Assembly (NCBI GenBank): GCA_001600615.1
Contig: BCKK01000003.1
Span: forward strand, 428,893 to 492,892
Direction: 5' to 3'
Source of the DNA: Dioszegia crocea
Taxonomy: Eukaryota; Basidiomycota; Tremellomycetes; Tremellales; Bulleribasidiaceae
DNA length: 64,000 bases
Shown: positions 4,764-26,464 of the stretch, piece after piece
Numbering within the stretch: the stretch's first letter is position 1
Layout: every line of letters begins with the position of its first letter
Made by a program: the position numbers and the translations under genes
Notes under the pieces: model-generated
The model's database searches: none
What the model was told of the DNA's origin: nothing
The model's input: the letters and a program-made list of their open reading frames with translations, nothing else

Positions 4764-4951
4764 GATGGTTGGGCTTTGTCTAAAGGGTGGCTGCAAAAGG
4801 GCAAGCTTTATCAGCGAGTAGGTAAAGTGCCCCGGGACCGATCGATGACGAGTGTGACTGTGCACGTGACTTGTTCACCCACCCACCCAAATTGATGTAT
4901 CTTTTGTTGTTCATCTGTACTCCTCCCGAGAGGGGATGTAACTTCACCGCC

Positions 4952-5732
4952 ATGTCCCTCAATCCTCACTTCCCTTCACCCGCTCCGACGCCTGATCAAA
5001 CTATACAGCCTACGCTTGCCGATTCGGATTTGGAGCAAGCCAATATCCGGGCTGAGGTAGAACGACAACTCCTTAGGCTGAGTCAGGATTTGTACGAGAT
5101 GGAGATTTGCGCAGGGGATGTGGGACAGGGTATGGAGGGTGCTGTTCCGGCATATATGTACGTCTTTTACTCATCCATTTCAGAAAAAAGATGGAGAAAG
5201 TAGCTCAAAATGCTAATACACTAGGGCAAAGATAAATCTTTCGTTAAAGGTGTTGTCGGACTTATCGGCAAGAATGACGGAAGGTGTACCTCGACAAGTC
5301 ATCGAGTGAGCTAGAAGGGCCTGAATGTTGATCCAAAGAACGAGCGCTAACTCCCTATATAGCAAAATAGACCTGTATGGTAATCCCCACGTCTACACCA
5401 AAACAGCCCTCACTCGCGCGACTGGCGAGAATCAATATGCCCTAGGCCGGATGTTGGGATTAGAGGTAAGCTCTGATACACTATCACCTGCCCTCAGACA
5501 AGTGGTGGTGTTGAGCTGACGGCAATAGAGCTTCCGCCGTCAATTGCATGATGCCCTATCTACCGATTTCCCACAAATACCTTTACCGGATCGGAAACAT
5601 GTTCCAATCCAAGATACTGCGAGCTTGGGGGAGGGCGGTGGAGAGGGAGTGAAGGCTGAACCTAATGGAGTTGGGGCTAATGGGGATATGAAGCAAGATG
5701 GAGAACACGCCAATGGAGATTCTGGGAGATAG
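4952..5732 (+). CDS. MED10: Mediator complex subunit 10 (Nut2)
   Basis: Four exons encode a small nuclear protein. The ATG at 4952 (MSLNPHFPSPAPT) is preferred over one at 4871, which would add an implausible leader. After a Pro-rich start come AEVERQLLRLSQDLYEMEIC, then KINLSLKVLSDLSARM, then the family hallmark DLYGNPHVYTKTALTRATGE followed by QYALGRMLGLESFRRQL. MED10 is an essential Mediator middle-module subunit linking activators to RNA polymerase II. The C-terminus carries a short Gly/Glu/Asn-rich extension beyond the usual family end. The gene diverges from FBXO9 across about 190 bases, so the two probably share a promoter region. Confidence 0.88.
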
Positions 5733-6205
5733 CGATTTGATGATCTGATCTGTGATGAAGTAATGTACAACCTCCTCCTCCTCCTCCGGAAATCGCTCCT
5801 CCTCTGTCGGCCGAAAGCTGATCACTGACTCTTCCACTAAGAGCCTAAGAGGCTATTGACGGTTCGTCTAGGGCCCTCTCGGCAGTATCCTTTGCCTCTG
5901 AAATCTTGACAATCAACTCCGTTGATCTGCGACTGCGGTTACGTACTGCACCTTTGAGCTCTGCAAGAGATGCCGGCGCCGCTAGCGAGCGACTTGAGCG
6001 ACATCGCAAATGATCAGGGGTGCCCACACGGATACGCCCGCTTTGAGAAAGCCGCCAGCAGTCATCCACTTCGCCAGACCAGTGCCTCACATCCTTGCTG
6101 GAGCTCTCGCTGAATGAGCCCTCCAGTCTGGGCACAATCCGACCTTAAACTCCAAAATCAACCCTCAGCGTCTTGCATACTTCACTTGTACTGAACTTCG
6201 CCAAT
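5733..6205. other. Convergent intergenic region, MED10 / MAPEG
   Basis: This is the 3' flank of two convergent genes. A minus-strand frame of 96 codons (5845-6135) exists but lacks any recognisable motif and sits where UTRs are expected, so I do not call it. Confidence 0.4.
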
Positions 6206-7007
6206 CTACCAAGGAGAGTTGCGGTACTGCTCTGCAGCCTTAATGGCAAGGGCGAAGCAAGATCCAACGCCAGTCCAATAACAGATCGTCCTGGCCCATG
6301 CAGTCTTGGCTGTTCTGGTCAGCTGGAAGGTCCTCATCGTGGAAGGAGATGTAGCTCACGGTCCTCGTTAAGTACGTAAATCAAGTTGTAGACTGATCGG
6401 GCAGATAGATAGGTACCGGCGCAAATGTGGAGGAATCGGACGGGGACTTTAGCGGCATTGGCGGAGGCCTTACAAAGTCAGTCAAAGTACGGTAAGAGTG
6501 GGTTAGACCTACAAGGCAAGCAGCAAATAGGCACAAGTTGCTGATATGTGAGTGGGCCGCTAAAAGAATGCGTGAAGCAAGGCTTACAGCTCGTTGTTCT
6601 TGTTGGCAGCAACTGCTCGGCGGATCTTCTTGGCGAGCTGTGACTGTAAGTTTTTCTGCTTCATGCAACGTACAAGCGATATGAAACGTACCGACGGGTT
6701 CACACCCTTCTTCTCGAGATCTCTCCATGATTCCGCGGGCTCCTACACGCGTCAGCACAGCGCGCGCCAAGTATCGGTAAGTGCACATACCGAGTTGTCG
6801 TAAGCTCCCGACGCGGCACCGACAGCCCACCAAGTAGGGGCGAGGCTGAGGTATCAGCCCAACCCTCGGAATGAGGCACATGTAGCAGATCAAGGGCGAG
6901 CTGTCTTAGACGAGAAGGACTCACGCCAAAGTCCACGCTACGGGGATAGCGTAGAGACTGTAGTTGACACGAAGGCCGACGTTGGAGGCGAAGTTACCGT
7001 AGGACAT
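6206..7007 (-). CDS. MAPEG-family integral membrane protein (copy 1)
   Basis: Spliced from about six short exons. It starts MSYGNFASNVGL with ATG at 7007 and ends YRNSPW before TAG at 6206. The protein is about 160 residues. Its hydrophobic segments are NYSLYAIPVAWTLALAPTWW, NLCLFAACLASANAAK, VRFLHICAGTYLSAR and ICYWTGVGSCFALAIKAAEQ. The YSLYAIPVAW opening and the R-x2-YNLIYVLNED...AWARTICYW end fit the MAPEG superfamily (microsomal glutathione transferase/FLAP-like, eicosanoid or lipid-peroxide metabolism in ER membranes). A paralog on the same strand lies at 20059-21063 and shares the N-terminus NYSL-AIP-W. Enzyme activity is not established by sequence; fungal members are mostly uncharacterised. 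Confidence 0.75.
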
Positions 7008-7740
7008 GTTTAGAATTGGTGTGAATTGCAAGTGTGGTAGAGGGTATAGACAGAAGAGTAGAGGAAGGAAACAACAACAGCCAGTGGCGCCGGCTTTATA
7101 TCGCACAGAGAGCACAGAGGACGATGCCGAAGGTATGACGCGTGGCGCGTGTGTCTTCGGCTCGGGATTTGCCCCTTTACGTCACCGCGCTCGGAGATGC
7201 CCGATATCTCCGAGATCTGAGACCCGTGCGTTTCAAAATCGTGCTTGACCGTTTGGGAGATGAAGCTTGCCTTCAAGCACTACCCAGCACATCAATACCG
7301 GCGACAAGCATATACCATACTCTAGCCGAACGCGTAGACCGCGTCAAATGACTCTATCATGTACAATCGGCGCTGGAAAGAGCCACCTCGGCTGCTCGTT
7401 GCCAGATCTGGGGTCCCAAAGGATGTGCTCTAGTCCGAGCTTGGCGCCTCGAGGCATCCCTCCCCCGCCTCGCCAAAAGCCCAAAGGACACCCTCGTCCC
7501 TCCTCACACACACACTAATACAGCTCAGTGGGCCGCGTGCCTGGATAGAACCCTCTGGTCAAATCTTGATTTCTTAGACTGGACCCCCAAAATGTATCCC
7601 ATCAGGTATAAGTATCCCTCAAGGATTCCATCAATACCTCTCCCTTGCCTCTCATTCTTCCTCTCCTTCTCCTAATACCTAAACCTATCACCCCCTCCTC
7701 TTCATACGTCCATCTAATCATACACTGAACCAGCTACACG
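7008..7740. other. Divergent promoter region, MAPEG copy 1 / microexon gene
   Basis: A 733-base region lies between two divergent starts. The part nearest 7741 is pyrimidine-rich (CTTCCTCTCC-type tracts at about 7620-7720), a common feature of fungal core promoters. I see no unambiguous TATA box or coding frame. Confidence 0.45.
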
Positions 7741-9464
7741 ATGCTCATCATCGACCCGGATAGTTCTCCCGATACCTCCCCTCGACCCTCCCCCTTGTCT
7801 GAACCCGCATACCTCCCGCCTATCCCGTCAGCGCTCGACATGGCCACCCACAAGGACCGTAAGGACAGTGATGATGGCTTTGAGATGCTTGACGTGAGTG
7901 GCATCATTGGGATGATTTGATGGTTTGGGAATAGTTGGCTGATGTGATAGGCCCCCGCCGTGATGCTTGATCAAACGAGCCAAGCGAGTTCTTTTCAGGT
8001 TCCTGATGCATCAGTTCAGGGCAAGAGCTGACTTTACAGGTCTTCAAAAGTACCCAACCCCAAAAAGATCAAGTAAGTCAAAAGCTCGCTGCTGTTCGAT
8101 GACGTGAGCATGAGCTGATCACTCAACAGGCTTGCATCACCGACGTCAAGCATGAGCAGGTGAGTATCATAGCTCTGTGAGAGACCTCAGCACTGAATAG
8201 TGGCTGACGAGATAGACTACCGATCAAAGCAAAGACCAAGTCTCACCGGTATGTCTAATCGCATTCTTTGTCGTTCCCCCTCCCGGCCTATCCTCCCTAC
8301 CGATTTTGTCCCCACTCTACGTACTGTGTGTATGAGCTGACGCGACCATAGCTTGGCAAAGTCATCGTCGAGCACGAGGTACTTTCTTGCCCTATCTACA
8401 GCTCGTTCTGATGTCAAATCTTTGCGCGTGAAGAGAACAGGCTGACGTGACAGATCAAAAACAAGGACGATGAGAAGGATCAGAACGTGAGTCTCTCCTC
8501 CTTGTTTATGCTTCTTGTGTCAAATCTTGTCCCATCATGTCCACTGGCGCAAGATAGAAGCTGAAACTTTAGACCGAAGGCCCCATAACCGAAACGACCA
8601 TGACCCCGACTGGACCGGCAAAGGGCTCCAAAGTGTGTAAACTCCCTGATTTCCTTCTTTCTTGTTTTGCTGACGATGCAGGTCAACGATGAATCTAAGA
8701 ATGTGACAATCCGAACACTGGGCCGTGATCAGATACAGTCCCAGCTGGTAAGTCTGGCACCTCTCTCTGTCTGGATCATGGGCTGATACTGTAGGTGCTG
8801 GATAACGATGCCCAATTCGATGACCTCGAGGTAAGTCCCGTTCTCTGCCCTCTCCACCTTTGCCTACAGCAATGATGGCCAAGTTCCCACACATGCTGGG
8901 GTGGCCGCTGATCTTCCAGCCTAAAGAGACCACCGACGACGTCTACCTTCCTCCGGTCTCTTCTGATGAATCCAAGGTAAATCCCTTTCCATCATGGTCG
9001 GTATCTTTGGCTGACTGTACAGAGCACTGCCGCCCTCCTACGACCCAAGACGGATGGTACCGTCAATAAGGTATGTCCAACTCTTCTCGTATCAAGAGCC
9101 TCACATAGTGTATTGGCGTCAAGCAAGTGCTGACGTGACTTTCAGCTCTCCGACAGCCAAGCTGTCTACCCGAAAGATGATCAGGCGGCTGAGGTATGTT
9201 GACCTTCAGCTTTCAGCCTAACACCTAAACCCGGACACCTGTCAGAGTATGGTACGCCGAGTAACTCCGATGGCCCGTGGGGAAGATAAGGCGGAGCAGT
9301 TAAGGAGCAGGCCAAACGATAAGGATGCTTGGCGGTGTGGCGGAGTAGCGTTGGGATTGGCTGTTTCCTTCCTTATCATAGAGTTCTTATCAGTAGTGTT
9401 CTTGGCGTGTCAGTTCCGCAGCAGCTCGCCTTCAGTATTTAGTACAGCCGATAGAGTAGGGTAG
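7741..9464 (+). CDS. Microexon-rich protein with predicted C-terminal transmembrane tail (5' part of the giant locus, or separate gene)
   Basis: The start ATG at 7741 gives MLIIDPDSSPDTSPRPSPLS. Exon 1 (7741-7893) is followed by 12 small exons of 27-66 bases, each a multiple of three with both introns in phase 0: 7951-7998, 8040-8072, 8130-8159, 8216-8248, 8352-8378, 8454-8486, 8573-8632, 8682-8747, 8795-8830, 8920-8976, 9023-9070 and 9146-9193. The product is hydrophilic and rich in D, E, K, Q and T, probably disordered. A last exon (9246-9464) ends with a 22-residue hydrophobic stretch (VALGLAVSFLIIEFLSVVFL core) and a short tail, as in a tail-anchored protein. The intron after exon 2 has a poor donor (GTTCCT). 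The microexon style continues at 9712-10001, so this may be the 5' end of the downstream giant gene, with 9246-9464 as an alternative terminal exon. I recognise no homolog. Confidence 0.5.
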
Positions 9465-10001
9465 TTAGCCATCGTCTCTATTCCCTACTCCTCTGTCGTA
9501 GTACTGAACCCTGGTTCAGATTAGCGTGCATATCCAACAACACCATCTCACCGTCCTATACCTGACGTTTATCACTGACATGGATCGTGCTGACCCTTAT
9601 CTTAGCTCGCTAAACAAGACAGTCTCATCCCAGCATATTGTTTCTCCCTGACTGTCAAGCTGCTTTGCCTTGTATCCCTACCCCCAAGATTATGGTCGGC
9701 TGACATTATAGACAATTGGCGAGACCAACAAGGATGGTCAGATTGTAAGTCTTCCTTTCCTCCTCTCCCCTCATCACCCTCCATATACTCCCAATACACC
9801 CATCTTGCTCTCTACACACCCGTCGTAATGACGCTGACGAATCAGCTCAAAGCGCCCAAAGGCTTTGAGACCCCTCCCCAAGCCTTAAGGTCCGAGGTCA
9901 CGAAGGTCAGTGTTGCCCCTCTTTCCCGAATTGTTCAGCTGCTGATATGACAGTCTGAGATCGAGCACATTGATCACAACAAGTCCGAGGCTCTGGACAA
10001 G
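7951..10001 (+). other. Array of symmetric phase-0 microexons
   Basis: Fifteen microexons are recognised by GT-AG borders and GCTGAC/GCTGAT branch sites. Twelve lie at 7951-9193. Three more lie at 9712-9744, 9846-9905 and 9954-10001. Lengths are 48, 33, 30, 33, 27, 33, 60, 66, 36, 57, 48, 48, then 33, 60, 48. All are divisible by three with phase-0 introns, so any one could be skipped without breaking frame. Encoded peptides are short, charged and not obviously repeated. They often end in K, Q, E or N just before the donor. Confidence 0.7.
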
Positions 10002-13000
10002 GTATGTCATCCTTTCTCCTTTTTGCCTCATGCCAGTCCCTCGATATATTGGACTTCTGGCTGACATCTTCTCAGCCTGTCCAGTCGGACAATCAAGGTT
10101 CTCTTATCCTCATCTCCGCAGTCGAGACCCCTTCCACTCGGCCCACCTCTACCATCAAATCTTCGGACGAGCCGACCGACCTGCTTACACCCACTCTGGC
10201 CACAGTGGCTTCCACTACCTCCCCTAACTCCCTCGAACTCCTATCCGGTACTCCTACCCCTATTCTCCAACGTTCCATTTCTCCGACCGAGACCATCACC
10301 ATATCCGAGGCTGTTGATTTGCTTTTGGGCCCCGTGCCTCAATCCCGTCAGGCTGAGTCCTCGATCGGTCATCAGGCCGGTAACGTCGGTCTATCCACCG
10401 CGATCCAGACTACCTCTCCCCCGCCCGCCCAACCATTATCCGAATTCGGCGCTCCTTGTCTTACCCAACTGCCTACCGTTGTCAGCCCTCTCAACGCGAG
10501 TTGCGATCAACACTCTTCCCTCAGCACCGAAGATAGCGATATCGACTCGGGCAGCATCAGCGGCCTATCTGCTCAGTCTGACTCATCTCAGAAAACAGAG
10601 AAGGCTGTCTCGGCCGTCACTCTCGTTGACGGCGGCTCGAATGAGCAGGCGGGAGCCAAGACCAGCCTAGATTAGGGTGAAGGCAAGGTCAAGGGTGAAG
10701 AAGAGCCGGAGCATGTGTGGCTCGCTGGTGAGTTGTCTTGATCGCGATGTAACGCGTTCCTGTGCTGACCAACTTAGAACGTCTGAAGCAGTACAAAACG
10801 CTAGCTCAGGCACCGACTACGAAAGAGCGTACTACCGACGAGTTCCCTCAGGCCGCTCAAGCATCTACCGAGCCTTCCAGCCCGCCGACTATCGTCAGTC
10901 CTATCGAGAAGCGTACGACACACCCAAACATCCGATCTCAAACAGACATCGACAGGATGAGCAAGTCCCAGCGTAAGAAGTACAAGGCAGGGCTTGCTCT
11001 GGCCTTAATGGAAGAGACCAAAGCCAATGCCGATTGCGAAGCTGCCACCTCTTCCTCTCCAGCTCTGAACGAACCAGGAGCTTCCGAGTCGCCAGCGACC
11101 GATGATCCGACAGTGGTCACCAAAGTTGATCTCGCCTCTCAGATGAAGGACACCTTCCGCCTCCTCCACCTTTACCAAGAACAAGGCACCAGTGGTCTAA
11201 GTAAGTCGATCTTGAAACTTCCCTTGACCCTTGCTGATCCGACAGACGAAAAAATCTTGATTGATCAAGAGGATGTCGTTCGTCTTGCCAATACTTGCCA
11301 ACCTGGCGCCGCGCTCGACATCGACCGTATCGATTTCGCCAAGCTCGACGACTCCATTCTTCATATCAGAGGAGTCTATGGCGATCGCGAAAGGCTTGTC
11401 GAGTATTTGGTGGACTTGGGCGCCGTTGATGAGTCTCTGTAAGTCTTCGTCTACTTCGACGTCTCATTACCGGGCTGACTCGATACAGAAGTCAAGATCT
11501 GCTCAATTCGGACGAGACCAACCCGAATAGAGCATCCATGCGATGTGGTCTCTATTTGGTCAAGCTGCCTTCAGACCAAGCCGTCATCTTCTTCTGGCCG
11601 GAGCAGATGACCTGGGACAGGGAGGCGACCAAAAATGTCGTCAGCAACAGAGTCACCTTCATGCGGTAAGTCTCTTCTCTGGTCAGATTACGCATCTTCA
11701 ATAAACTGATGCTTCTTAGATACCTATCGAAAGTCTCCGACCAGCTCTACTGCCTTATCGATAAGAAGCAGCTCAAAGACCTCGACTTCAAGATACCGGA
11801 CGCCGATCATGATGATTCGGACTCGAGTGACGATGAGATGGACGCTGTCGCGGATTTGTCGGTGCAGCGGGTCAGCGAAGCCCAAGAGGGTATCCGTCTC
11901 GACAATGAGAGGTCGAAACTCGTAAGTCTTCTCCTTCACCCGACTTGTACTAGCTGACGAATAGATGCACATCGGTCTCCCCACCCTATCATCACCCTTA
12001 CCGACCCATGTCACAGCCGATCTTCGGCCCAGGCTAGTCACTGGTCTGAAGAATCTCGGACTTATGACTGCTCGATATTGCGAAGCCAAGACGAAAGTCT
12101 ACCAGCACACGACAAGTCCATGGCGTACTATGCCCTCCAGAGCTTGATCGCGTGAGTTAGTCTCTTTCGCCACAGCAGATTCTCGATGGCTGACAACACA
12201 GGACTTCTGAGATCACCATTGGAGCTCAAATGCCAATGAACGAAATCGACCTGCTCATCCGCAGCGATTTACTCCAAGGCGTCAAATCTCCTCAGGCTCA
12301 ATGGTCGAAATTGAAGTCAGAGTCGGATGCTCGAGTTAACGACACTCACAAGTCTACATTACATCGACTTGCGACTGCTGCCGATGCGAATTCGCCAAAC
12401 TACAAAGCTGCCGCTGAGGTTTTCGCTGTTGGGTCGCTAGCCGAACGGTTTCCGTGAGTCATTTTCTAAACCCTGCTGTCCGGTCAGCCAGATGTAGGCC
12501 AATAGCTGATAGATAGATCATTCGCTGTGGATATTGCTATCCGGCCTGTGATGGTGGAGAAGAAACGTGAGTGCCAAACGGCTATCAAGGTCCTCAGCTG
12601 ACTGTTCTTCTCAGGCATTTCGAAGCTATCCAACAAGAACAGCGAAGTCGAATCACAAGCTATCCAGGCTTTGGACATCTGCGCCGATGCCCAGGCGTAC
12701 CTGCGGAAGGACTTTACCGAACCTCGATACCAGCGGGGTAAGAACTACATCCTCGAGGTCCTTCATATCCTCAACAAGCATCCCGACATGTCAAAGTCCG
12801 AACGCAATGACCTCTCACTCCAACTCACGATCGACATCAACGCCGATGATGAAGATGTCGGAGTATCGGCCGTTCACCCCGGGAAGGTGAAGTCGGCATG
12901 GCGGACACTGAAAGGCGTATTTGGTCTCGACACCGACGGGAAACTTGGCAAGTTGAGCCAAGAGTATCAGGACGACGCAAAGTTCATCCGCCGGCTGTCC

Positions 13001-16000
13001 GAGCTCGGGGGCACTCACCCCTGCCTTCAGCGGCCGGCCGAGGCTCTTATGAACATCGCGCGGGAGTCATTGCTCAATCGACGAGACGACATGATTCGCG
13101 AAGGCGGCATCTACCTTCACAAGGAGGCAGTCGAGGCCATCAAGCAGGAAGCAGCGGCCAACAAGGCGGAGTGTCAGCGCGTGGAGGATGGCAAGATTGC
13201 CAAGACGTACATCGCATGGTTGAACTCGGAGCTTCGTTCTGGTTCAGGCGATTCATACCCAAGGTGAGTACATTCCAATTGGACACTGGAATTTGGCTGA
13301 CTCAGCAGATCAATCGTCGTACTTCAAAACGTCCAAGAGATCTTCTCCGTTTACTCGGGAACGAGTGAGTACCAAGTTGAATAAGTGGCTGATAACCCAG
13401 AATTCAACGTGACATTCAAGGAAACCAAGGCTTCTCCGGCTTTGGTACAGTACGAAGTCCGTTTGCTGGGTGTAAACAGTACTCAACTTGTCAGTCAATA
13501 ATTTATGGGTCTAGTCTGGGCTGACACCGCAGAACCTGATGGTTGAAGAAGCTGTTGAGGCCCCACACAACCCCCAGTTGGACGTCATCTGTAAGTCCTT
13601 TAACTTTCCCATAAGTATTACCGGCTAATACCTCCAGGCGTCAATAGTCTGAAAGTCTACTTGGCCCCGCATCTGAGCATAAGGTGAGATTGACTCCCTC
13701 GTCCTGATGAATATCCTGACATTGCAGGTCATTTGTATATCTTGACGATCGACAGTCCACCTATATCATGGTTGTCGATGATCCCAAATCGTAAGCTCTC
13801 CAACCAGACCCTGACTAATCCCTCAGCGCCAAGTTGTGCATCTACCTTTCAACAGACCACAAAGCCACCCTTCACTTCGACAAAGCCGACCTTGAATCAG
13901 ACTACCTTGTCGCTGTTGATGTCAAGCGACGAGTGTTCGCTATCGTCTCTAGCCACAATGTGAGTGCTTCACGCCATTTCTACTTGTACATGGCTGATGA
14001 TACAGCGCACGATCTACAACTACAAGATCGCCCCTGACGGCCTCTCTTGCAAAGCCCAGCTTGAGATCGACATGAAGGACCGGTGCGCGCCGGACACTCG
14101 CTTCTTGAATGCTATATTCCTGGCAGATACAACCAAGCAAGAACTGGTATTGGTCGATTCGACCGGCCAGGCCAGAATTTTCAGTATGGCGTCTTTACAA
14201 TTCAGGTAAGTCGTCAGTCTTCTTGCTCCAATGAACTTCACTGACAAACAGACCACCCTCCGTCGCCCTACCCAATTTCGACCCGCGACACCTGCTCTCT
14301 ACCGTCGATGGTAGTGCCTTCCTGTCGACCTACAAAGATGGCGAGCAGGTCGGGCTTCGAGGCCACATGTCAACGTCTTTCGGGCAACAAGACGCACTCG
14401 ACGGTCACGCTCTCGACATCATTCTCTCCCCTTCAACCGATATCGCCGTCTTTGCTCCGGCGTCCTCCGGCCGCATGGTTTTGGTCTACCTCGACCCTGA
14501 AGCCCAAACTATCAGGTCCACTCGGCTCATCATATCGAATGAGGACGCCCAAGATCAACTCCTTCCCAATCGACGGACAAGATCCACGCCGATTTCTGCA
14601 GGGTCTACTCAAAGCCCTCTACTCGGCGTATTTGACGATATGTGGACTCGTTTCCCCGTCGTCGCTGCTATTGAGCGAGACAATCTGGACGCTTCCACCC
14701 GAGTCAAACCAGCCCTGACTTTGGTTGAACCTACTTCCGGCGCAATCAAGGTGTCCCAGTTTCAGGCGCATTGGAATATGGTGGTTGCAGTGAGTCATTC
14801 CTTTGGATGTTGTATTCTTTCGGCTGACTGTCCAGGACTTCAAAAAGCGAACCAATAAGCCCACAAATGGGACTATCGAGACTACTGTCCTGGGCGTGAG
14901 CAGTAACATCGCTCTCACGGATCAAGTATCTTCCTTCAAGCTTGGACAATTGCTGGTTGAGCTGTGCTGTCTCATTCCTCTCCATGTGGCAGTGGCTCGA
15001 GACCAGGCATTCATTCCAGTGAGTAGTCATTATAGAAATCCTTGGTCTAAGCTGACTTGACTCTACAGTTCACGCGAGGCGTAGACGATATTGAATGGGC
15101 TCGAAGTCTGCTGGGCGAGACTGTCGAAGCGATTGCGGCGTCGATTTCTTTAGGCTGGTATGAGGCGATTCTCGGCCAATACTATCGACACAAGGTAGGC
15201 GTGGTTCCCTTATTGCTCAAAGCTGTGGCTGATTTCCTATAGCCACTTCGGGTGATCAGTAGCCTTGGCAATCAGTCTGTAGGCAAGGTGAGCGGATTCC
15301 GATCGACCGATACTCGAATACAAGCTGATGACATCAGAGCTACATGTTGAATCACATTGCCGGGAGCAGCTTTGCAGGAGCGGCGGGTCGGACTACCGAG
15401 GTATGTGATCGTAGCTAGCAACCTCGTGAATTAATACTGACATTCCAGGGTGTCTGGATGGCAGTAGCCCCAACCAAAGAGTGCATCCACGTACTGCTCG
15501 ATTTTGAGGGTGTCAACTCGCCGGAACGTAGTCGTGAGTATAGTCTTCATGGCCTGTACCCAATAATCTGCTAACTTCTGCAGTCCAAGAGGACATGTTC
15601 CTCGTTCTGTTTAACGCTGCCCTGTCCAATATGGTCCTCGTAAGTCTTTTGTCCGAGCATGACGTGACAGATTGCTAATGTACAGTTCCGTAATCACCTC
15701 GATGTCGGCCGAGACCTACTCAAGTTGTTCGAAGCATACAAGAGCTCTGCCACCTACTTCGATCCCGATGCCAATCCAGGGCTCTTCAATGGCAAGCTCG
15801 TCATGATCATCAAGGATGTTCTGCGCAATGATGGTCCAGGAGCCTGTACCGAGTAAGTCACTTCCCGACGTCTGTATGGTGATTGTCGAGCTGATATACC
15901 CAGATTCAAGCAGAAATTCCAGGAAATGATAGTGGCGGATGGGGATAAGAATTTCCTCACCCGTTTACATCGTAAGCAGATGAAGATTGGTAAGTTTATC

Positions 16001-19000
16001 GAATTGTTGTCGTCGGATTAGCGCTGACGTATCAGTACCCTGGCCCGTCATCCAAGATCCGAGGTTTTGTAAGTCTTCGCTGACAGTGGTGAAGCTGTGC
16101 TGATCTATAGACTTTCATTTCGACAGACACATCGTTAAAGATCTGCAAAGCATGGAGCCGACCTGGAAGACCGCTGGTCAATTCGTCGACACGCTGAAGC
16201 TGCTGGAGGCCAAGCTTAAGGTGAACTCAGGTTTGAGGTGATAGCTGATGATCAGGCAACGGATTGGACACCCCTCGATTCTGGTCTTGTATCTCAACGA
16301 ATCAAACTTCTGAAATACGTCCTACCGGTTGCCATTGCCAAGGGTACCAGTGATGAAGACCGATTAGAGCCCCTCACTGTACGTCCTTCTCAATCCAGTT
16401 TGTCGCTCAAAAGCTGATCTGAGCAGGAAATCGCCAGTGCCTACCCTATCATCATCGTTGGCCAGCATCATTTCGACTGTATCACTTTCAATGACAAATC
16501 TCCTACCGCATCATTCGACAACATGTATCAACAATACCTACGCCTTCACCCTCGATCTACATCCGATCACGAATGGAAATCTGGCTTCTTGGCCGATATC
16601 TCGACAGCTCTCGAACGGCGCATCACCCTAGTCACTCAATGGGCAGAGACCAATATCCAGTCACTCTCCCAAGACCATAGCGATGTCATCCAGTGGCGAG
16701 CGGACGTCAAGCACGCCGTGGATCGTCTGAGACAGAGTTACCGGACTTGCTCGCAGTCGTGCAACGAATGTGAAATTCCTTGTCTGCTCCTCTCGGCACA
16801 TGATGGCGAACACGACTGCCGCACCGACCATAAATGCGATCAGAAGTGCGGGTATGATGATGAGCACAAGTGCGCCTCACCTCCTTGTAACCTTCGGTGA
16901 GTTTACTTGAACTTGCCCGAATTCCCAAGCTGACAATTAGGGCTATGCACCAAAGTCGACATGTCTGTAATCCTAAAGTACACACCTGCTCCGTGCCTTG
17001 CGCCATGGAGAAGAGTTGCAAGTCAACATGCACCAGTGTGAGTCAAGATCTCTGCCGTCGACTATGTTCTTCCAGATGCTGACCTGAGCAGACCAGAGAT
17101 CATCCAGCTGAAAATGGGCACATCTGCTCAGCCAAGATTCACATCTGCGACCTCAAGTGCGACTTTGACAATGGCGAAGGTCACAAGTGCGGCGGACGGT
17201 GTACTTTGAAGCTGTGAGTTGCTTTCTTTTCCCGGTACCATCGAGACGAGCTGACTCCTCAGTGATGAGCCACACCCTCGACACGAATGCATCAACCGGT
17301 CATGCTCGATGGTCTGTGCTCTCTGCCCTCGTATGTGCAGCCAGAATGACCATTTCCACGGAATGGAAACTGGTGCAATCCATCTTTGCGGGTGAGTCTA
17401 GAGTCTTGATAGTTATATTCGGTCTTGAGCTGATAGTACAGGCAAGGTAAAGTATCATGGCCTTGAGGGAGAGACCGGTAAGCTAATTTGTCAGATCACG
17501 CTTGCAAGCAGGATTGCGAGCACAAGGGAATCTGCGAGATCGCACCGCATCCGTCATCCGTCCAGACTATGTTCCAAGGTGCGAAATTTGGAATTCCTTT
17601 GCTATTGTATCGACGCTGACGTACAGGGACCCGATCGACTTATCAGTACACCAAGTTCTCTCAATTGGCCAAGCGTCTCAAATGCGTCAAAAAGATCCCA
17701 GCGGGTAAACTCAATCATCATGGTCAGTACGAGATATAGTTTTCTGATGAAGACCGTCAGCTAATCTTCGCAGGCGATCATTCACATCACGTTGGCAAAA
17801 AGCGCCACCACTTCTGTGATCAGAAATGCCCATCTTGCCAGTAAGTCTCCCACCCTTTGAGTCTGCAAGGGCGTCCGAGCTGATTAACCAGGTACTATTG
17901 CAGGTTGCCCTTTGGTCAGTAGCTCTGATACAAATGATTCGGAAGCTGACTCGCAGGCCATCCTCAGTCAGAGCACGACACTAGCCATGGGAGTATGACC
18001 GCGACGAGATGGTCAATCGAGGACGGGGAGGAGATCCGAGTCGGAGCGCACACCTTTGCTCAAGGGGATGAGGGGGCGCCTATGCTGTGCGATAAGGTGT
18101 GCTCTGGTCAGGGCAGAGTGAGTTTCTGGCTTCATCATCATTGGGGACCAGAGAAGTAAGCTGATCCAACAGCATACACATATCGTTGAGTGCCACAGTC
18201 ACGATGTGAACACCTGCGGCCAGGACGAGGAGGATCTGGAGCATATCCACAAGAGGATCTCTCCTCACCCTGATCGACCGAAAGGTGGGTCATATTTAGA
18301 TGTCAAGTGCTGATGTACCAAGATGCTATAACTCACAAGCTGCACTTTCAGCAGATGGGTTGGAAGGTGAGTCCGCTTTACTGCAGAATTGCCGCACTGC
18401 TGACAGTGCAGGATCCCTACACTCGGCAACAACAAGATGAATTCAAGCTCTGTGATCACGTTTGTGCTGGTGAGCTGTTTTCCCTCTGAGGAACCGAGTA
18501 TCAATTAGCTGATTTGGCAATAGGTGTTGAGCATCACGCCGGCAAAGCGTCTCACTGTATCCGCCCAATGTCTCATGCGGAAGATTACCAAGGAAACATT
18601 CCTCAGGATGGGTACATGGGCGATCATGGTCATGTCTACGAGTGCAAGTACCCTTGGAGCAGCGGTCGAGCATCCCATATGTGCGTATTCTCACCTGAGC
18701 TCCTAATCAGTCATCCTGCTGATGGTACAGTATCTTTGTCCTGGATCGGTGAGCCTTTAGATCATACCGATGTGCCGGACCAATTGCTGATACGTAGTTC
18801 TGGCACAATGGCTTCACATGACCGGAAACCTAAGCGAGATGGACCGGGCTACTCGACAATCGCGCCCAGGGCAAACAACAGGTACGGCTCGATGCTGTCA
18901 GCATGTCATAGGTGATTTTCTTCCTTTTTCTCGTAACCTCTTCAATTCAGTCATGCTGACCAGTGCTCAGGTTCTGGACCTCTCGCCAAATCACTATTGA

Positions 19001-19686
19001 TTCTCTCGGACCCAATGCTGGTCGTGGAGACACTTACTCCATCATCCTCTTCAACGAACAGCCCCTCTTGCTCGTCGAAAATGACGTCGATCTCAAACCC
19101 AATGATCTTCTCGCCAAATGTCTGCAATACTCGGCCGCTGGCGGCGCGGACGTGGCCTCTGCGCTCGAACGGGCCCAGGAAGTCATGCTGGCAAATGTGA
19201 GTGCGCTTGACCGACACCAGAATCTTCGGCTGACGTCTGCAGTGGGATGATGATAATATACCGGTCGTAATCTTCCTCAGTGATGGAGATTTCGCATTTT
19301 CAGAAGAAGAACTTTATCCGATCTGCAGGATGGCATCCGCTAAACGGTGAGTCGTCCATCTCAGCATTGTGATCGTCAACACGGACTCCGCTGACTTTGC
19401 CTCAGTATACCCTTGAACCTGCATGCCGTCTCGTTCGGTCCAAATGAGACATCATACTCGCTCCGCAGAATGGTAGATACTAGTCAGCATTTCTACCACG
19501 CTTCTCCAAAGTGAGTCTCCGACATTCACTGTCCATAGCCAGGCTGACCCTTCCAGGGACTCCCGGAACGATCCAGGAAATGGCTGCAGCTTCTCAACTT
19601 CCCTCGATACTGTCCAGATCGATACGGTATTTTCCGGATCCGCCGAAACGCTACAGAAACCCAGGGGTTCTTTGGTCGTGGTATGA
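9580..19686 (+). CDS. Giant GBP/VLIG-like GTPase with Cys/His-rich region and C-terminal vWA domain (frame lesions near 5' end)
   Basis: More than 30 exons; my estimate is 2,400-2,600 residues. The start is uncertain: ATG 9580 (MDRADPYLSSLNK) splices in phase into microexons 9712-10001. Next come a Ser/Thr/Pro-rich segment, a conserved region (RCGLYLVKLPSDQ, FFWPEQMTWD, NRVTFMRYLSKVSDQLYCLI), helical and possibly beta-propeller-like segments (about 12.2-14.8 kb), and a GTPase. Its P-loop SLGNQSVGK|S is split by an intron after K (15243-15287), followed by GRTTEGVW, LLDFEGVNSPE (G3) and LVMIIKDV (G4-like). Then a Cys/His-rich region (16.7-18.5 kb: CDQKCGYDDEHKC, CSVPCAMEKSCKSTC) and a vWA domain with MIDAS IFVLDRSGTM (18731 on) and VVIFLSDGDF, ending at TGA 19684-19686. 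I recall uncharacterised Agaricomycete proteins with this order. An in-frame TAG (10673-10675) and a frame break near 12106 suggest decay, errors or a gene boundary. Confidence 0.65.
10673..10675 (+). other. In-frame TAG inside an otherwise open exon of the giant gene
   Basis: The exon starting at 10076 is open for 199 codons and then meets TAG. The same frame continues GGT GAA GGC AAG (GEGKVKGEEEPEHVWLA) to a good donor at 10727-10728. It joins in phase to the next exon at 10778 (ERLKQYKTLAQ). I found no in-frame intron that would remove the stop. It is either a nonsense mutation, a sequencing error, stop readthrough, or the end of one gene with another starting downstream. Confidence 0.6.
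12106..12110 (+). other. Apparent two-base (AC) frame discontinuity in the giant gene
   Basis: Upstream the frame reads RYCEAKTKVYQH. Downstream the only frame that splices correctly reads DKSMAYYALQSLIA and joins TSEITIGAQMP. The join lies in CAGCACACGAC, where removing one AC restores YQHDKS. Without it, the upstream frame stops within 13 codons. Confidence 0.55.
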
Positions 19687-20058
19687 TGAGAGAATAAGGT
19701 GGGATTGATATCCAGGATGAGAAGGAAGCATGGAATTGAGGTGGAAATCCGATGTGTTAATTAGCTTTAGGGGGTTTCGGATCTTAGGGAGTGCAGTTGG
19801 GATTCTTGGGGTTTTGAATAGCCTAGTTTGTTTAGATGACTGAATGTATATGATAAACCTGTACGTCGATGGGATTAATCATAGGAGATAGATCAGCAAG
19901 GAAAGAGCCAGAGAGACCGGAAGGGAGGTAGCGGTGACGCTTGCCTTGCTTGAAGTATATTGGACCTTCGGCGCCAGCGCAACTTTCAAACTTGATGCCA
20001 TCTCGCTCAACGTCAACTACTCGAATCCGACTGTCCATCCACCTCGCTATAGATGAAC
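19687..20058. other. Convergent intergenic region after the giant gene
   Basis: This is the 3' flank shared by the giant gene and the second MAPEG gene. A minus-strand frame at 19832-20170 overlaps the last MAPEG exon in another frame and is a shadow. I see nothing else here. Confidence 0.5.
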
Positions 20059-21063
20059 CTAGTACAAGACCCGACCAGCCTCGCTGAAGAGCGCAAAGCA
20101 AGCCAAGATGGAGGCGACGTAAGAAACGGATCGCAAGTTGGCCATGGTAGCTACGAAAATTAGCATACATTCCATATCCTGCAAATCCGAAATGAAGGGG
20201 TTTCTATATTCTGAAGTCGGGCGGACAGGGGTAAGGGTAAGGGGTAGAGTGACGGGGGAGACTTACGGGTGGTACCGTTAATGTAGAAGTGAATGTAAGC
20301 GCCTCGTGCAGCGAACCAGAAGAGGACGGTGTTGTTTAGGAAACGAGGAGTGAGGCGGGCGTAGTTACCGGCGAGCTAGAAGATTAGCACGAGATCATAT
20401 AGGAGATTGAGGAAGAAGAGGTTGAGGGATTCAGAGTGCGGGATTGAGGATAGAGAAGGAGGTGCAAGTCAGGCAAATGAGTGGATTTGAGGATCACTTT
20501 GATGAGATCAGAGTAAAGTCCGCTCCTCGTAACTACGCCGCCCTCTTTTACGGCTTGAGGACCCTTCGATACGATAACCCTTTCCAAAACCAGACTTCAA
20601 ACTCACGACAGCAGCGGCAAAGTAAGGCAGGGTGGTGTGCGAGTTATCGTTCGCTCCCTCGGCCTTGAGGAATCGCTCAGCCATAAAGGGGCTCAGCTTG
20701 GCCTTCTTGATACCCTCCGATCGGTTCTGTCCTGGGAGCTAAAAAAGTGTCAGCTGTGGAACCCCTCTGTCAGACGAAAACGACTTACGAGATTGTCCCA
20801 AACGGGAGTTCCGGGAGCTCGCTCTTTCTGTCGTCAGCTGATGTCGATTCTGAGACATACGTTGAAGAGAGCAACAGCGTAGAAGTGGGGCACCATGCTG
20901 TGGCGCGTCAGCAAAAATCTCCACATCTAAGACCGCGGAGCTGAAGGCATTGGGCCAATCGAAACATAGCCCCCCGCGTGCGGCTATAAACTTACGCCAA
21001 GACCCATCCTGCCGGGATGGCGAAGAGGGAGTAGTTGTGTGTGTGGAGACCGGCGAAAGACAT
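20059..21063 (-). CDS. MAPEG-family integral membrane protein (copy 2)
   Basis: Spliced from about six exons. It starts with ATG at 21063 (MSFAGLHTHNYSLFAIPAGW) and ends SEAGRVLY before TAG at 20059. Conserved MAPEG features are VLAMVPHFYAVALFN, then ERAPGTPVWDNL, a mid-protein AERFLKAEGANDNSHTTLPY (the family's R-A-E-x-A/N region before the second helix) and LFWFAARGAYIHFYINGT. Four hydrophobic helices are expected, as in microsomal GST/FLAP-like proteins. This copy matches the family better than copy 1, which lacks the clear RAE motif. Both copies lie on the minus strand, one on either side of the microexon/giant-GTPase locus. Function is inferred from family only. Confidence 0.8.
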
Positions 21064-21310
21064 TGTAGATGCTAGTTGGAGAAGGTAGGTAAGGGATGGT
21101 ATAGGCTGACAAGAGAGTAGAGAGGAAGGAGATGAATGGGAGGAAGGAGACGATCGGGGTGGTTCAATGTGGCATTACGAGAGCGAGATGACGTCACATC
21201 CAAGGGGCTGGGTGCCACTTTCGGATATCCCCGGCGTATCTCCGACGGCTGTGGGAGATTGGGTGAGATTTTGAGATTTTGGCTGTAACTACAGTATACA
21301 TCTATACATA

Positions 21311-21954
21311 ATGCTACCCCTCATATCCCGCCCTACCCTCGCTTCTACATCCCGCCTAGTGATCACCATCACCCGCTGCGCCTCCCAATCAGCCGGATCA
21401 AACCCCCATCTCGCCCTCCCTAGCGATACCCGAACAGACACCATCCGTCAGACTCTCTACCCCTCCACCGCGCACCGCCCATCCTCTGCATCACCTACTG
21501 GCGCGTACCACCCACAATACGCTGAGCGCGTCGAAGCTGTAATCGGAGACGCAGAGGCACACGAGACGATCGAGCGGGCGTGGAAATTGTTCCAAAGGGA
21601 AAAGAGGGCAAAGCAGCAAGAGGTCTTAGGGGCGAAATGGGCCATGATGGTTAAGGCGTGTGAAGAGCTGGATGCTGTGACTGGAGGAGAAGGAGGAGGG
21701 GCGCAGAGATATGTTTATGAGCGGGCGATGTCGAGGCCTAGTTTCAGCCCCGGAGAGGATGCCAAGGGGAAGAAGGGGAGTGAGGCGAGGTTCTTGGAGG
21801 TTAGGCTGGAAGGGATGGTTCCGAGGGAAGCGTGGGTCCCGACGGAGACTAGGGGTAAAGGGTGGAATTATGAGTGGAAGAGACCGGGAAGTGGGAAGGA
21901 GGTGAGTTGCGATCGCCTCGAGAACGGTCGAATATCAGCTGATGGGTATAGTGA
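21311..21954 (+). CDS. MRPL28: Mitochondrial large ribosomal subunit protein mL40 (Mrpl28)
   Basis: The ATG at 21311 opens an N-terminus (MLPLISRPTLASTSRLVITI) rich in R and S without acids, typical of a mitochondrial presequence. The mature part contains YAERVEAVIGDAEAHETIER, then AWKLFQREKRAKQQEVLGAK, then WAMMVKACEELDAV, the helical signature of mL40. The coding exon ends at ...RPGSGKE. A GTGAGT donor at 21901 and a GCTGAT...TATAG acceptor lead directly to TGA at 21952-21954, so the final coding exon would contain only the stop codon. Unspliced reading would add an unrelated tail running into the next gene, which is unlikely. The gene diverges from MAPEG copy 2 across about 250 bases. Confidence 0.72.
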
Positions 21955-22134
21955 GACATCTAGGTTTTGGGTATTTTGGTTCGGTGGCAGCGCATGTATC
22001 GCAACCGCTAGCAGACTGTTCAATTCCTCTTGGAAGCAGGTATATTATCCGGCTATTCTCTACTCATCCAAATGGTCCTCTCGACAATCTTCACATGACG
22101 GATCCTTCCAATCGCCTCCCGCCTTGAAAAACAT

Positions 22135-22584
22135 CTACATATNCCCCANCCAAGCCACATCCGCCAGGCCCTGCGCCTCCTTAACGTCCTTGCCTTCCAA
22201 CACCGCCTTCAGATACACAATATCACAAACAGCCTGTCGATGATCTTTATGGCTGAGATTGGCAAGGGTGTTTTGCTGGAGATGTCAGCCAACTGCGAAG
22301 GGAATACGGTCGCTCGTTCTGGTGGAAAGGCAGGACGCATAAACAGTCAATGTAACTGACCAATCGGCACATTCTTTCCGCAATGACTGATTTGAAGCTT
22401 TCGGGCGATTCGACAAGGTGGATGTATTGCTCAGAGAGCACGTATGGCTTGGGGGAAGATCTGTGGAGTTAGCAGAAGACAGCTTGAAGGAGGAATAAGG
22501 TCTGATCTAGATGCGAAGGCAGGCTTACGAGTCATCAGCCATCTCGACTGAAGGGACAGATAGTGCGACTTGGTCGGTTGTCAT
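22135..22584 (-). CDS. Small conserved-looking hypothetical protein
   Basis: Three exons give about 98 residues, starting MTTDQVALSVPSVEMADDS at 22584. The rest is mostly alpha-helical in character: LSEQYIHLVESPESFKSVIA, then ERMCRL, then QNTLANLSHKDHRQAVCDIV, then YLKAVLEGKDVKEAQGLADV, with a stop at 22135. Splice sites are good and phases agree, so I believe the gene is real. I do not recognise the family. Two ambiguous bases (N) at 22143 and 22149 fall in the last five codons, so the C-terminus is uncertain. It converges on the mL40 gene. Confidence 0.6.
22143..22149. other. Ambiguous bases (two N) in the assembly
   Basis: The sequence has N at 22143 and 22149, within an AT/C-rich stretch overlapping the end of the small hypothetical gene. 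They show local low-quality consensus, which matters when judging nearby frame breaks. Confidence 0.95.
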
Positions 22585-22903
22585 GGTGTGTGCAGGAGGC
22601 TGGGAGTGCCCTACTTATGTTTGATGGGAACTCTGAAGGGTGAAATACAGATTGATAATCGATATGATACGCAAATGGGTGGGGTGGAGAACAAAGCAAG
22701 ATTGGATCTGACCTTACTGCTTGACGCGACTGTGGAGGAGCTAAAGGAGTTAAAGGGGTAGGTACGGCTTACAGTTGGGTGGCCCTCGACCTTATCCTCC
22801 TTTGTTCTCCTCACTACCCTTCGAAGGGCGCAGGGTTTGATGGGATGCTGATCATGGTGTGAGCTCTCATACTGAAAATCAGGCCTCAAGGGCGGCGATG
22901 AGG

Positions 22904-22965
22904 CGATTTCTACCCCACTTAGTCGACAATCCACCGATTTCTACCCCACTTAGTCGACAATCCAC
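22904..22965. repeat. Perfect two-copy tandem repeat, 31-base unit
   Basis: The unit beginning CGATTTCTACCCCACTTAG occupies 22904-22934 and is repeated without change at 22935-22965. Confidence 0.95.
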
Positions 22966-22989
22966 TGATACGCACTGACTCTTCACCAA

Positions 22990-23023
22990 CGACCGCTTAG
23001 CCTAGGCGACCGCTTAGCCTAGG
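22990..23023. repeat. Perfect two-copy tandem repeat, 17-base unit
   Basis: The unit CGACCGCTTAGCCTAGG at 22990-23006 is repeated exactly at 23007-23023, only 24 bases after the 31-base duplication. Confidence 0.95.
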
Positions 23024-23194
23024 TCTGCCGATCCGAGTGAGGTCCCTCGGGAGCGACTCCAGCCCTCCAAAACTCTACATCCAAGGTCTGACACGCCAAC
23101 CTCGACTCCATCCTTTATCGCGCGATCGCTCCAACGAACTTGTGGAGCCCTTGTACAATGGTCGACTCGGACTGTGGTTCAGCCGTGATATGGC

Positions 23195-23229
23195 GTGAGT
23201 TACCGTGTTGTGCCGGTACTGAAGGGATG
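23195..23229 (+). promoter_or_regulatory. Upstream block conserved between the two FGG-family paralogs (copy 1)
   Basis: This 35-base stretch aligns without gaps to 26980-27014 at about 26 of 35 positions; the first 10 bases (GTGAGTTACC) and the last nine (TGAAGGGATG minus first base) are identical. It lies 243 bases upstream of the ATG, against 264 in the paralog. It may be a regulatory element, an untranslated leader intron start, or a remnant of a shared 5' exon (both read RELP...EGM). Confidence 0.4.
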
Positions 23230-23437
23230 ATCAAGCTGACTTATGTAGGTGACGAGTCGTACGCTGTAAGATCCTTTATATCCCGCTTTACCTCTTGGTT
23301 TTGGGGGTTCAGAAGGGGGCTTCTATACTCTCTTCTTCAAGCTCCCCACCCTCTCTTCTCTACACTTCACACACCACACTATCCGCCCCAATGACAATAC
23401 AGCTTTCTTCCCTGACTTCCGCACACACATTCTCACC

Positions 23438-24039
23438 ATGAGCCAAGGTGAGTCTGGCTTAAGCCTCAGGAAGGCACATACATACTCGAGTACAAGCTGA
23501 CCTGCTCTCAGACAGCAATTCGAGCGGTGGTAAGCCGGAGTATATTTTCACAACAGGTGCCGTCGTCAGTGTGAAGGGCGTCGGCGGAACAATCTACAGC
23601 GGCCTCACCTCTCCTGGAGACCCCACCCCCTGGTTCCGACTCAATGCACTTGTGCACGGTTTGGGCGGGACGAACGGCTTTGGCGGCAACGCAGTGCACA
23701 TCTCGGTGCCTGCGAGCGATCAATATCCGGATTCCAGACTGGATATCCATTCCGATGGTACAGCCATCTTTGGGCCGGACGGCGGCGAGCGGAAGTCTCT
23801 CTCCGATGACCGCGGCAATCACACTGTCTACTGCAACGGCAAAGGCGCGTCGATCCTTTTGGTCTTGAACGACCCTTTCTACACTGGCGCCGACGATACA
23901 CAGCCTTCCCAAGGCGGCAGCAGGACTCAGCACACTTCAGGAGAGCGGTGAGTTATCTTGATTCATCCATGTGAGAGGTGGCTGATCATGTTTAAGGAAC
24001 GCGCAGGATGGAAAGTCGATTCTCGATGGGACAGCCTGA
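23438..24039 (+). CDS. FGG-family protein, short paralog (unrecognised family)
   Basis: Three exons: 23438-23447 (ATGAGCCAAG), 23512-23947 and 23997-24039, about 162 residues. The core reads TGAVVSVKGVGGTIYSG, then HGLGGTNGFGGNAVHISVPA, then YPDSRLDIHSDGTAIFGPDG. It aligns with the longer paralog at 27244-28733, sharing AVVS, GFGG-N-FGG-VHIS-P, YP--L-I--DGT. The composition (G, D, N, S-rich, alternating hydrophobic) suggests a beta-rich fold. There is no signal peptide, so a cytosolic or nuclear location is likeliest. I recognise no family and propose no function. The short version lacks the DGN repeat region of its paralog. Confidence 0.65.
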
Positions 24040-24692
24040 ACCCCTACGTGTACTGAGGCGGGCCTCGGAGTGTATGGTACGTGTTACATTGCCGGTCTGG
24101 TCTGAGAGCTTCAAGCACGGCGCTTTCGTCAAGAAGGAGGGGATGGTTTCAGATAATACGCCGAGATATTATTGACAGTTTGGAAACTGACAGCATGTAT
24201 ATAGTCTGTTTTAATGCGAGATCCGCGTGGCCGATAAAGAAAGGGTTCGGCAAGGGCTGATACTGGTATCTGATGTTCACTGGCTGGTCTCAAATGCTCA
24301 TCGTTACATCTAGTGCGGTACTGAACAACCTGATCACTAATGCTAGAATCTCAACGATCGTACGACTGTGATTCAATTCACCTGATGACTGAACGACCCA
24401 TCCATGACCCTGATCAAGGCCGAACCTTCCTTTCGAGCTTTTCAGGGGGCTCAAGCACGACTTCTACAATGGGCAGTTGGGCTGTCACATGCTTAGGCAT
24501 ACCGTGAGTATTCATCAAGTATGTTTAGCATTTGATTCAGCTGGGCACGCGTACAGAGTCGTCTTGTCCCCCGTAGACACAATCCATTAGGTTGACCCGT
24601 AGAAGGATCGTTGAACGGGAGTTTAGACACGAGTCAGTAATGATCGAGTCATTGTGCCTCACAGCATACCATCTACAGCAGTACTCGACCGC
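24040..24692. other. Convergent intergenic region, FGG short paralog / NTH1
   Basis: This 653-base region lies between two convergent 3' ends. No frame with plausible splice sites or motifs was found. Confidence 0.5.
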
Positions 24693-26464
24693 CTAGATAT
24701 CGCCATTCTCCTCCTTCACCTCCATCTTGACCAGGGTCTCCGCCATCGGAATCGGCAGACACCCCACACTGTCTTCCAAATCCACAATTGGCCCAATTAC
24801 CGGCGCTGATCCTATATCCGGCAAAGTATAGGTATAGGCAACCACCTTGCGCCCCTCTGCTTTTACGCCGGCAACCCTGCTGGGACATATACGCCTGATA
24901 CCTAACAGGCAAATATCGCACCGTGGTCCTGTAGGTAGGCAAACCATCTAGATGGGTCAGCTATTACGTCCGAGGAATTGAAGACAATAGGGGGAATGAA
25001 TATGGAGACGGAAGATTTAAGGGTGTCGGGTCGTTGAGACATTGAGAGAATGCGCAAAACGTACCTGTCCAAACCCAACCAGCATCGGATTAATCCCCTT
25101 GTGCAACTCGCTCGGCAGCCAAGATTCGAGATTGACTCTCGTTTGCTCTGGGGTGATAGTAGGTGGTTTATGCCATTTGAGTCGATTGGTAATTCGGTGA
25201 ACATGTACATCGACGCCTATACCAGCATTGCTGGAATGTCAGCATGGTATCACAACCTCATAGTGAAAAAGAAACTCACATGTCCCAAGCACACTGCAAA
25301 GCCAGATAAGCCATCTTTGGCCCTACACCCTTCAACGCGCAAAGCCCCTCAATCGTCCGCGGTATCTCTCCCTGCTCCCACTGGACTCCATCCCCCTCTC
25401 TCCCCGCACTATCGCCCTCATCCCCATCTACCGCAACAACCTTATCCAGATCCTCCACTTCCAGTCTCTGTGCAGCCTCCTGGATATACCCCGCTTTCCG
25501 TCTCCAAAACCCCACCTTGTTAATACATCCCTCGACGACCTCTCGTTCCGCCGCGGCAAGGGATATTGACGTGAGTCCTCCTGAGAGTGTGTGATGTAGC
25601 GATGTCACAGCGGCAGAGGTGACGGCGTCTTTAGTCTGAGAAGAGAGCATGAGGGAGATGAGGACGTGGAAACGGCGTGTTTTGGCGGGGAGGGCGCGTT
25701 CGATTGAGGGAGAAAGTGGAGGGGCATGCGGAGTGGCGAGTGCTGACGCGGGAGTAGAGGGGGATGTTGAGTTAGATATATCGGGGACAGGACCCAGATC
25801 AGGACGTTCACAGCCCCTAGCATAGTCAGTCTTCATGCGGTCTCAAAACAGAAATAACTGACATGGTATCTACAGGCGCCAATAAACCCCTTCGCATTTC
25901 TTCAATCAACTTGTACTGCTCCTCCCACCTCGCCGGTGTCGGATGAGCCTTTGTCAGAGGCGCGAGAGGCATAGCCTTCTTGGGTGTAGATGGTTTCCGC
26001 TTGATTTCCGGCGAGGCAGTGACATCCCCGATCTCAACGAGATCATCTTCCCGCAATTCGGCTTTCACAATTGTCCGGCGGGTCGACCTAGACGGAGTAG
26101 CGGTAGGAGAAGGATGTTCCAACTTCGCTCTTTTGCTTGGGGTGGAAGTGGCCGAGCTTGGTGCGGGTTGGTTGGGGCCGATCTCGATAAGTTCCGCTTT
26201 GACAGGAGTGGTATTTGTGCTGCCGCTGGCCAGCGAGCGTGTCGATCGTCTCAGGGAGATATAGCCAGAATCTTGTGATATGTCTGAGCTATCATTCCTC
26301 GTGAGCGACATCGATAGACCAGGCAGAGTGAAACCCGCTACATCGGGCGCTTCAGATGTATTGACCGTAGGAGGGGGTACACGGAAGCGGGGTTTGGCGG
26401 ATCGTGCGGGCCTCGCTGATGTGCTCAGAGCCCGATCTGGAATCGAGATGTCTGCATGGTCCAT
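24693..26464 (-). CDS. NTH1: Endonuclease III homolog (bifunctional DNA glycosylase/AP lyase)
   Basis: Four exons from ATG 26464 ([13 protein letters not shown]) to TAG 24693. A basic, Ser/Pro-rich N-terminus of about 200 residues (likely nuclear targeting; [20 protein letters not shown]) precedes the HhH-GPD core. That core has [19 protein letters not shown], the helix-hairpin-helix [20 protein letters not shown] with the catalytic Lys, and [17 protein letters not shown] with the catalytic Asp. The [4Fe-4S] loop follows VGFGQ as [19 protein letters not shown], spacing C-x6-C-x2-C-x7-C against the usual x5 in the last gap. The enzyme excises oxidised pyrimidines in nuclear and mitochondrial base excision repair. 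It lies between two paralogous FGG-family genes and diverges from the longer one. Confidence 0.92.

What the first reader, a model, noticed from the sequence alone, without database searches (positions are those of the whole stretch)
9580..19686. Fungal giant protein joining a GBP/VLIG-like GTPase, Cys/His-rich arrays and a vWA domain
Seen: P-loop SLGNQSVGK|S, a DFEG motif, about 1.8 kb of Cys/His-rich coding sequence, and a MIDAS IFVLDRSGTM with a C-terminal vWA. Known: animal GBP and VLIG GTPases act in innate immunity, and vWA MIDAS sites bind ligands through a metal. Inference: one polypeptide combining nucleotide sensing, many zinc-like clusters and ligand binding could be a stress or self/non-self response factor. 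I recall similar basidiomycete proteins but no described function.
Basis: partly seen in the sequence, partly recalled or inferred. Interest (0 to 1): 0.8.

Follow-up and report, generated by a model that had tools for sequence, protein, structure and literature searches.

The report
Fungal GBP-like GTPase with vWA domain
This is a real giant fungal gene that joins a GTPase fold resembling animal immune GBPs to a metal-cluster-like array and a ligand-binding domain; it belongs to a large mushroom protein family for which I found no described function, and the copy here carries a frame break.

Summary

Corrections: the frame breaks near 12118 inside a conserved exon. There is an in-frame TAG at 10673, and the start codon is unsettled. 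The vWA metal site is altered here.

It is not a singleton: 711 proteins matched one relative's GTPase region (120 listed), in mushrooms often several per genome. This genome shows one copy, sister to a Tremellales protein. VLIG (URGCP) and RHD3 cut-offs fail; GBP and vWA cut-offs pass, but the GBP cut-off does not exclude Sey1.

My searches found no described function. Best guess: a cytosolic GTP-switched scaffold that captures ligand with its vWA head, possibly in surveillance. That role is inference. Here the gene may be decaying, unless the break is an assembly error.

The parts
9712..10727 (+). Leader of low conservation: exons 9712-9744, 9846-9905, 9954-10001, 10076-10672, then an in-frame TAG (10673-10675), then 10676-10727. 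Start codon not settled
   Evidence: few relatives have residues aligned here
11137..12117 (+). Conserved N-terminal domain (SQMKDTFRLLHLYQEQ ... KVYQHTTS), no Pfam match at E 1
   Evidence: 41% identity to P0002 over 217 aligned residues
12118..12119 (+). Place of a one-base frame shift inside exon 11965-12151
   Evidence: profile matches continue in another frame
12120..13255 (+). Variable region; helical in the low-confidence model of relative P0008
   Evidence: Lowest conservation after the leader; helices 1-211 of P0008 (mean pLDDT 52.5)
13256..14576 (+). Beta-strand-rich, propeller-like region (end approximate, mapped from P0035 residue 187)
14956..16267 (+). GBP/atlastin-type GTPase domain: P-loop 15267-15340, TTEGVW within 15389-15457, DFEG within 15497-15514, IIKDV 15806-15820
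   Evidence: limits mapped from P0035 residues 298-578
16268..16747 (+). Helical domain after the GTPase, matching the GBP/atlastin middle domain in a relative's model
   Evidence: model residues to 718 aligned with hGBP1 to about residue 397; mapping
16748..18680 (+). Cys/His array with repeated CxxxCxxCxxxC and CxnHxCxxxC units
   Evidence: 71 conserved C/H columns, 70 kept; both repeats above shuffle means
18670..19686 (+). C-terminal vWA domain; MIDAS altered (DRSGT, GGAD)
   Evidence: exon 18798-18911 corrected

Best explanation
The locus is one intron-rich gene of a large fungal family for which I found no described function; the nearest relative is a Tremellales protein. The protein is: poorly conserved leader, conserved N-terminal domain, variable region, propeller-like region, GBP/atlastin-superfamily GTPase with a helical middle domain, Cys/His array, vWA. 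Shown: the architecture, the GTPase fold of a relative (by prediction), the conserved GTPase motifs and the Cys/His conservation. Inferred: GTP loading drives G-domain dimerisation, as in GBPs, atlastin and Sey1; the array is a metal-stabilised rigid arm; the vWA head captures a peptide or protein ligand; ligand-bound molecules cluster into a cytosolic signalling or coating assembly. Also inferred: the role is surveillance of intruders or foreign cytoplasm. In this genome the gene is a single copy with a broken frame and a weakened vWA metal site, so it may be in early decay unless the break is an assembly error.
Confidence: 0.4

Rival explanations
1. A housekeeping scaffold or ubiquitin-type factor: a large GTPase with zinc-binding modules that works on membranes or protein turnover, as RNF112 couples a RING to an atlastin-like GTPase (RING recalled).
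Against: No RING model among the 5 families of the window pieces or the 19 families of 23 relatives, at E 1; the only ubiquitin-related name there is ANAPC9, one relative, E 0.7. Several entries per genome in mushrooms against one copy here, unusual for housekeeping.
Confidence: 0.25
2. A membrane-shaping dynamin-type GTPase like Sey1 or atlastin.
For: RHD3_GTPase matches 23 of 23 relatives scanned, best E 1.9e-11 (URGCP_GTPase also matches 23 of 23, best E 8.9e-5). The P-loop GxQSxGKS and TT[EK]G[IV]W resemble the genome's own Sey1 exon. Sey1 is Foldseek's top match.
Against: The genome has a separate Sey1 whose exon scores RHD3 148 bits, while the window protein scores 27, under the 42.4 cut-off. 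The hydropathy test is inconclusive: the window and 123 of 210 relatives exceed the threshold, but in the window and in 6 of the 12 strongest relatives listed the stretch is the conserved segment at the edge of the GTPase fold.
Confidence: 0.15
3. In this genome the gene is a decaying relic with no full-length product.
For: Frame shift at about 12118, in-frame TAG at 10673, altered MIDAS, single copy.
Against: 1,855 aa and 42 introns downstream without another lesion. G motifs and 70 of 71 array Cys/His columns kept. The TAG lies in a leader where the gene model is uncertain.
Confidence: 0.35

Closest known systems
Guanylate-binding proteins (hGBP1, hGBP2, hGBP5)
   Different: P-loop without the Arg of GBP1 (recalled motif); C-terminal Cys/His array and vWA instead of the GBP helical effector domain (recalled); Cys at -4 in only 4 of 210 relatives
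Sey1 / RHD3 / atlastin
   Same: Fold (Foldseek's top match is Sey1); GxQSxGKS P-loop; TT[EK]G[IV]W
   Different: Below the RHD3 cut-off; the genome has its own Sey1; no clear membrane hairpin, test inconclusive
RNF112
   Same: Atlastin-like GTPase in a protein with a cysteine-rich module
   Different: RNF112 has a RING (recalled; paper PMC12012479 seen only as listing and start of its text); here a long array without a convincing Pfam match, and a vWA
VLIG / URGCP giant GTPases
   Same: Very large protein; URGCP_GTPase is the window's best GTPase match by E-value (2.4e-8)
   Different: Score 33.6 against cut-off 55; the genome's Sey1 exon scores 31.1 on the same model, so the match is not specific; different attached domains
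vWA-MoxR NTP-dependent conflict systems of bacteria
   Same: NTPase working with a vWA domain (PMC7159879, passages)
   Different: AAA+ partner in a separate protein, bacterial; no PADLOC match for the three relatives scanned

Membership tests
Guanylate-binding protein (Pfam GBP, PF02263) | Whole-protein score above the curated cut-off | tested here: met
   Window 23.5 against 21.1. Not specific: the genome's Sey1 exon scores 29.1, and relative P0035 scores 16.6, below the cut-off
Guanylate-binding protein | G domain plus helical middle domain fold | tested here: met
Guanylate-binding protein | P-loop Arg and G4 RD (both recalled) | tested here: not met
   GNQSVGKS and IIKD in the window; G4 position K in 123, R in 2 of 126 relatives
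VLIG/URGCP | URGCP_GTPase above cut-off | tested here: not met
   33.6 against 55
RHD3/Sey1 | RHD3_GTPase above cut-off | tested here: not met
   27 against 42.4; own Sey1 exon 148
von Willebrand A domain | VWA_2 above cut-off | tested here: met
   33.6 against 27
von Willebrand A domain with MIDAS | DxSxS, Thr and Asp metal ligands (recalled) | tested here: not met
   DxSxT and Ala for Thr in the window; Asp kept. Relatives: first D in 92 of 99, last S in 101 of 102, T in 89 of 102, second D in 98 of 98 with a letter
NFX1-type or other known zinc finger | Pfam match or the recalled NFX1 spacing | tested here: not met
   No zinc-finger family for the window pieces at E 1. In 23 relatives single weak hits only (Ribosomal_L24e 0.086, zf-C2HE 0.21). 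Recalled NFX1 pattern: 0 in the window, 1 each in P0001 and P0035, 0 in four others
Beta-propeller | Closed propeller fold | tested here: inconclusive
Innate immune or allorecognition factor | Induction, polymorphism or phenotype | not testable with these tools
   No expression or population data here

The most novel reading that the evidence does not exclude
Fungi carry their own GBP-type immune repertoire: multi-copy cytosolic GTPases that sense intruders or foreign cytoplasm with a vWA head on a metal-cluster arm. It is expanded in mushrooms and nearly lost in Tremellomycetes, and the window shows a copy on the way out.
Probability: 0.25. Interest if true: 0.85.

Novelty: new member of a known kind. 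Interest (0 to 1): 0.5.

Why it matters
In two reviews of fungal immunity that I searched for terms (PMC12881547, PMC10197012), the words GTPase, dynamin, guanylate and GBP do not occur in the main text. If this family acts like GBPs, fungi would have a second, non-NLR arm of cell-autonomous defence or allorecognition, and the link between animal GBP immunity and older eukaryotic GTPases could be tested in tractable mushrooms. The Cys/His array, without a convincing Pfam match, could be a new metal-binding module.

Tried and rejected
Rejected: two separate genes, because one stop-free frame and continuous homology join GTPase and vWA. Rejected: an intron hiding the frame break. Rejected: Sey1 as the identity. 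No defence island seen: scans of 1-9600 and 19700-29300, all six frames, gave only GH15, F-box and HhH-GPD/HHH families; 29301-64000 was not scanned.

Led nowhere: the first gene-finder run found no path; automatic retraining of the predictor (a bug in frame counting; discarded); the first structure model (P0008, pLDDT 52.5; not searched); NFX1 pattern; HxxxHxC units (2 in the array, shuffle mean 0.43, maximum 4); NCBIfam for P0037 and P0152 (only matches far below cut-offs); PADLOC for three relatives; paper searches. The paralog test gave no support for diversifying selection. Folds of the vWA and the array were not obtained. The transmembrane test is inconclusive. Rfam and tRNA scans of the window found nothing. 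Rows left out: the profile dropped relatives with 500 or fewer residues in the region; the tree used 207 of 211 sequences (210 relatives plus the window; those without the P-loop pattern left out).

Full report
What is there. A gene model built from splice signals and then corrected by hand and by homology gives 50 introns of 35-101 nt (median 48), all GT-AG. From 12120 to 19686 it reads 1,855 codons without a stop. Upstream, 400 codons read in frame up to 12117. Before them stand a TAG (10673-10675) and a 246-codon leader piece.

The frame break. A profile of the family (relatives only) matched the spliced window DNA in one frame over 11140-12129 (score 226) and in another over 12084-14023 (score 118), with profile positions 2-277 and 263-762. 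A one-base shift lies near 12118 in a conserved exon. It may be a true lesion or an assembly error; reads would tell. The TAG lies in sequence that few relatives share and may reflect a wrong model.

Domains. Pfam on the downstream piece: VWA_2 33.6 bits (cut-off 27), GBP 23.5 (cut-off 21.1), RHD3_GTPase 27 (cut-off 42.4), URGCP_GTPase 33.6 (cut-off 55, but the lowest E-value of the three GTPase models), VWA 12.9 (cut-off 23.8); no family for the 400-aa N-terminal piece and none over the Cys/His array. The GBP and URGCP models also match the genome's Sey1 exon (29.1 and 31.1 bits), so neither is specific. PDB sequence hits at E up to 1 are GBP1, GBP2 and GBP5 (5.5e-4 to 0.037) and Sey1 (0.51); with a profile Sey1 (3.5e-4), GBP2 (0.0023) and a CLCA chain over the vWA (0.0095). 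The motifs G1 GxQSVGKS, G2 TTEGVW, G3 DFEG and G4 IIKD are nearly invariant in 126 relatives.

Cys/His array. In an alignment of 126 relatives plus the window, 71 columns between residues 1838 and 2271 are Cys or His in more than 80% of rows with a letter (occupancy above 60). The window keeps 70. By the same rule 10 such columns lie before residue 1751 and the window keeps 4. CxxxCxxCxxxC occurs 3 times (mean of 1,000 shuffles 0.02, maximum 1) and CxnHxCxxxC 4 times (mean 0.19, maximum 4); HxxxHxC is not in clear excess. Metal binding is inferred from this.

vWA. Relatives keep S at the third MIDAS position in 101 of 102 and Thr in 89 of 102; the window has Thr and Ala there. Its closest relative P0002 keeps S and T, so the change probably came after their split.

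Family. The whole-piece search gave 9 relatives, including Rhizoclosmatium (a chytrid, recalled). One relative's GTPase region gave 711 proteins at E 1e-3, 120 listed; the window's own region gave 540, 120 listed. The listed names that I recognise are mostly Agaricomycetes (recalled taxonomy). Reading names in both lists I counted 9 entries for Tulasnella sp. 403, 9 for Imleria badia and 8 for Lactarius psammicola. Four of the last share a contig length of 204,314 bp, which I take to be one contig. These are lower bounds, and some entries may be alleles. By crude patterns, 124 of 126 relatives have the P-loop, 93 a Cys-rich stretch, 70 a MIDAS-like motif, and 54 all three; in the alignment 98-103 of 126 have residues at most vWA motif columns. 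Some database models (P0043, P0002) look mis-spliced in the array, which would lower these counts. Tree: window and P0002 (Tremellales sp.) are sisters, support 1.0. In the window-centred list P0002 is the only Tremellomycete that I recognise. The own genome (20.6 Mb, 17 contigs) shows one copy by GTPase, array and vWA queries, with Sey1 as the only other GTPase hit at E 0.001; the tool scores only the best candidates.

Divergence. Among paralogs taken to lie on one contig (equal contig lengths) the G domain averages 88-98% identity and the variable region 43-60%. Between five Armillaria proteins the same order holds (97 and 79), so the gradient does not show paralog-specific diversification.

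Papers. Searches for GBP, VLIG/URGCP, vWA and fungal immunity found no description of this family (listings). PMC12881547 and PMC10197012 were searched for terms and passages read. PMC7159879 and PMC8195603 passages were read. The library lacks most subscription papers, so a description may exist.

Verdict. Real, correctly spotted, a member of a known but, as far as I could find, undescribed family. The immune reading is plausible and open. The local copy may be decaying.

Noticed in passing
window 15-200, +: Glycosyl hydrolase family 15 fragment at the left edge
   Followed up: no
window 3606-3731, -: F-box protein
   Followed up: no
window about 25113-25659, -: HhH-GPD base excision repair glycosylase, split over frames
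   Followed up: no
window 22143 and 22149: Two single N bases
   Followed up: no
L007 4567-4938 and 6553-6888, +: The genome's Sey1 gene, used as a contrast
   Followed up: partly
P0159, P0200: Relatives named 'E3 ubiquitin-protein ligase TRIP12' by their source; the Pfam domains listed for them are GTPase (and for P0159 vWA) only
   Followed up: no
P0059: A Mycena venus relative with an added Arf domain
   Followed up: no
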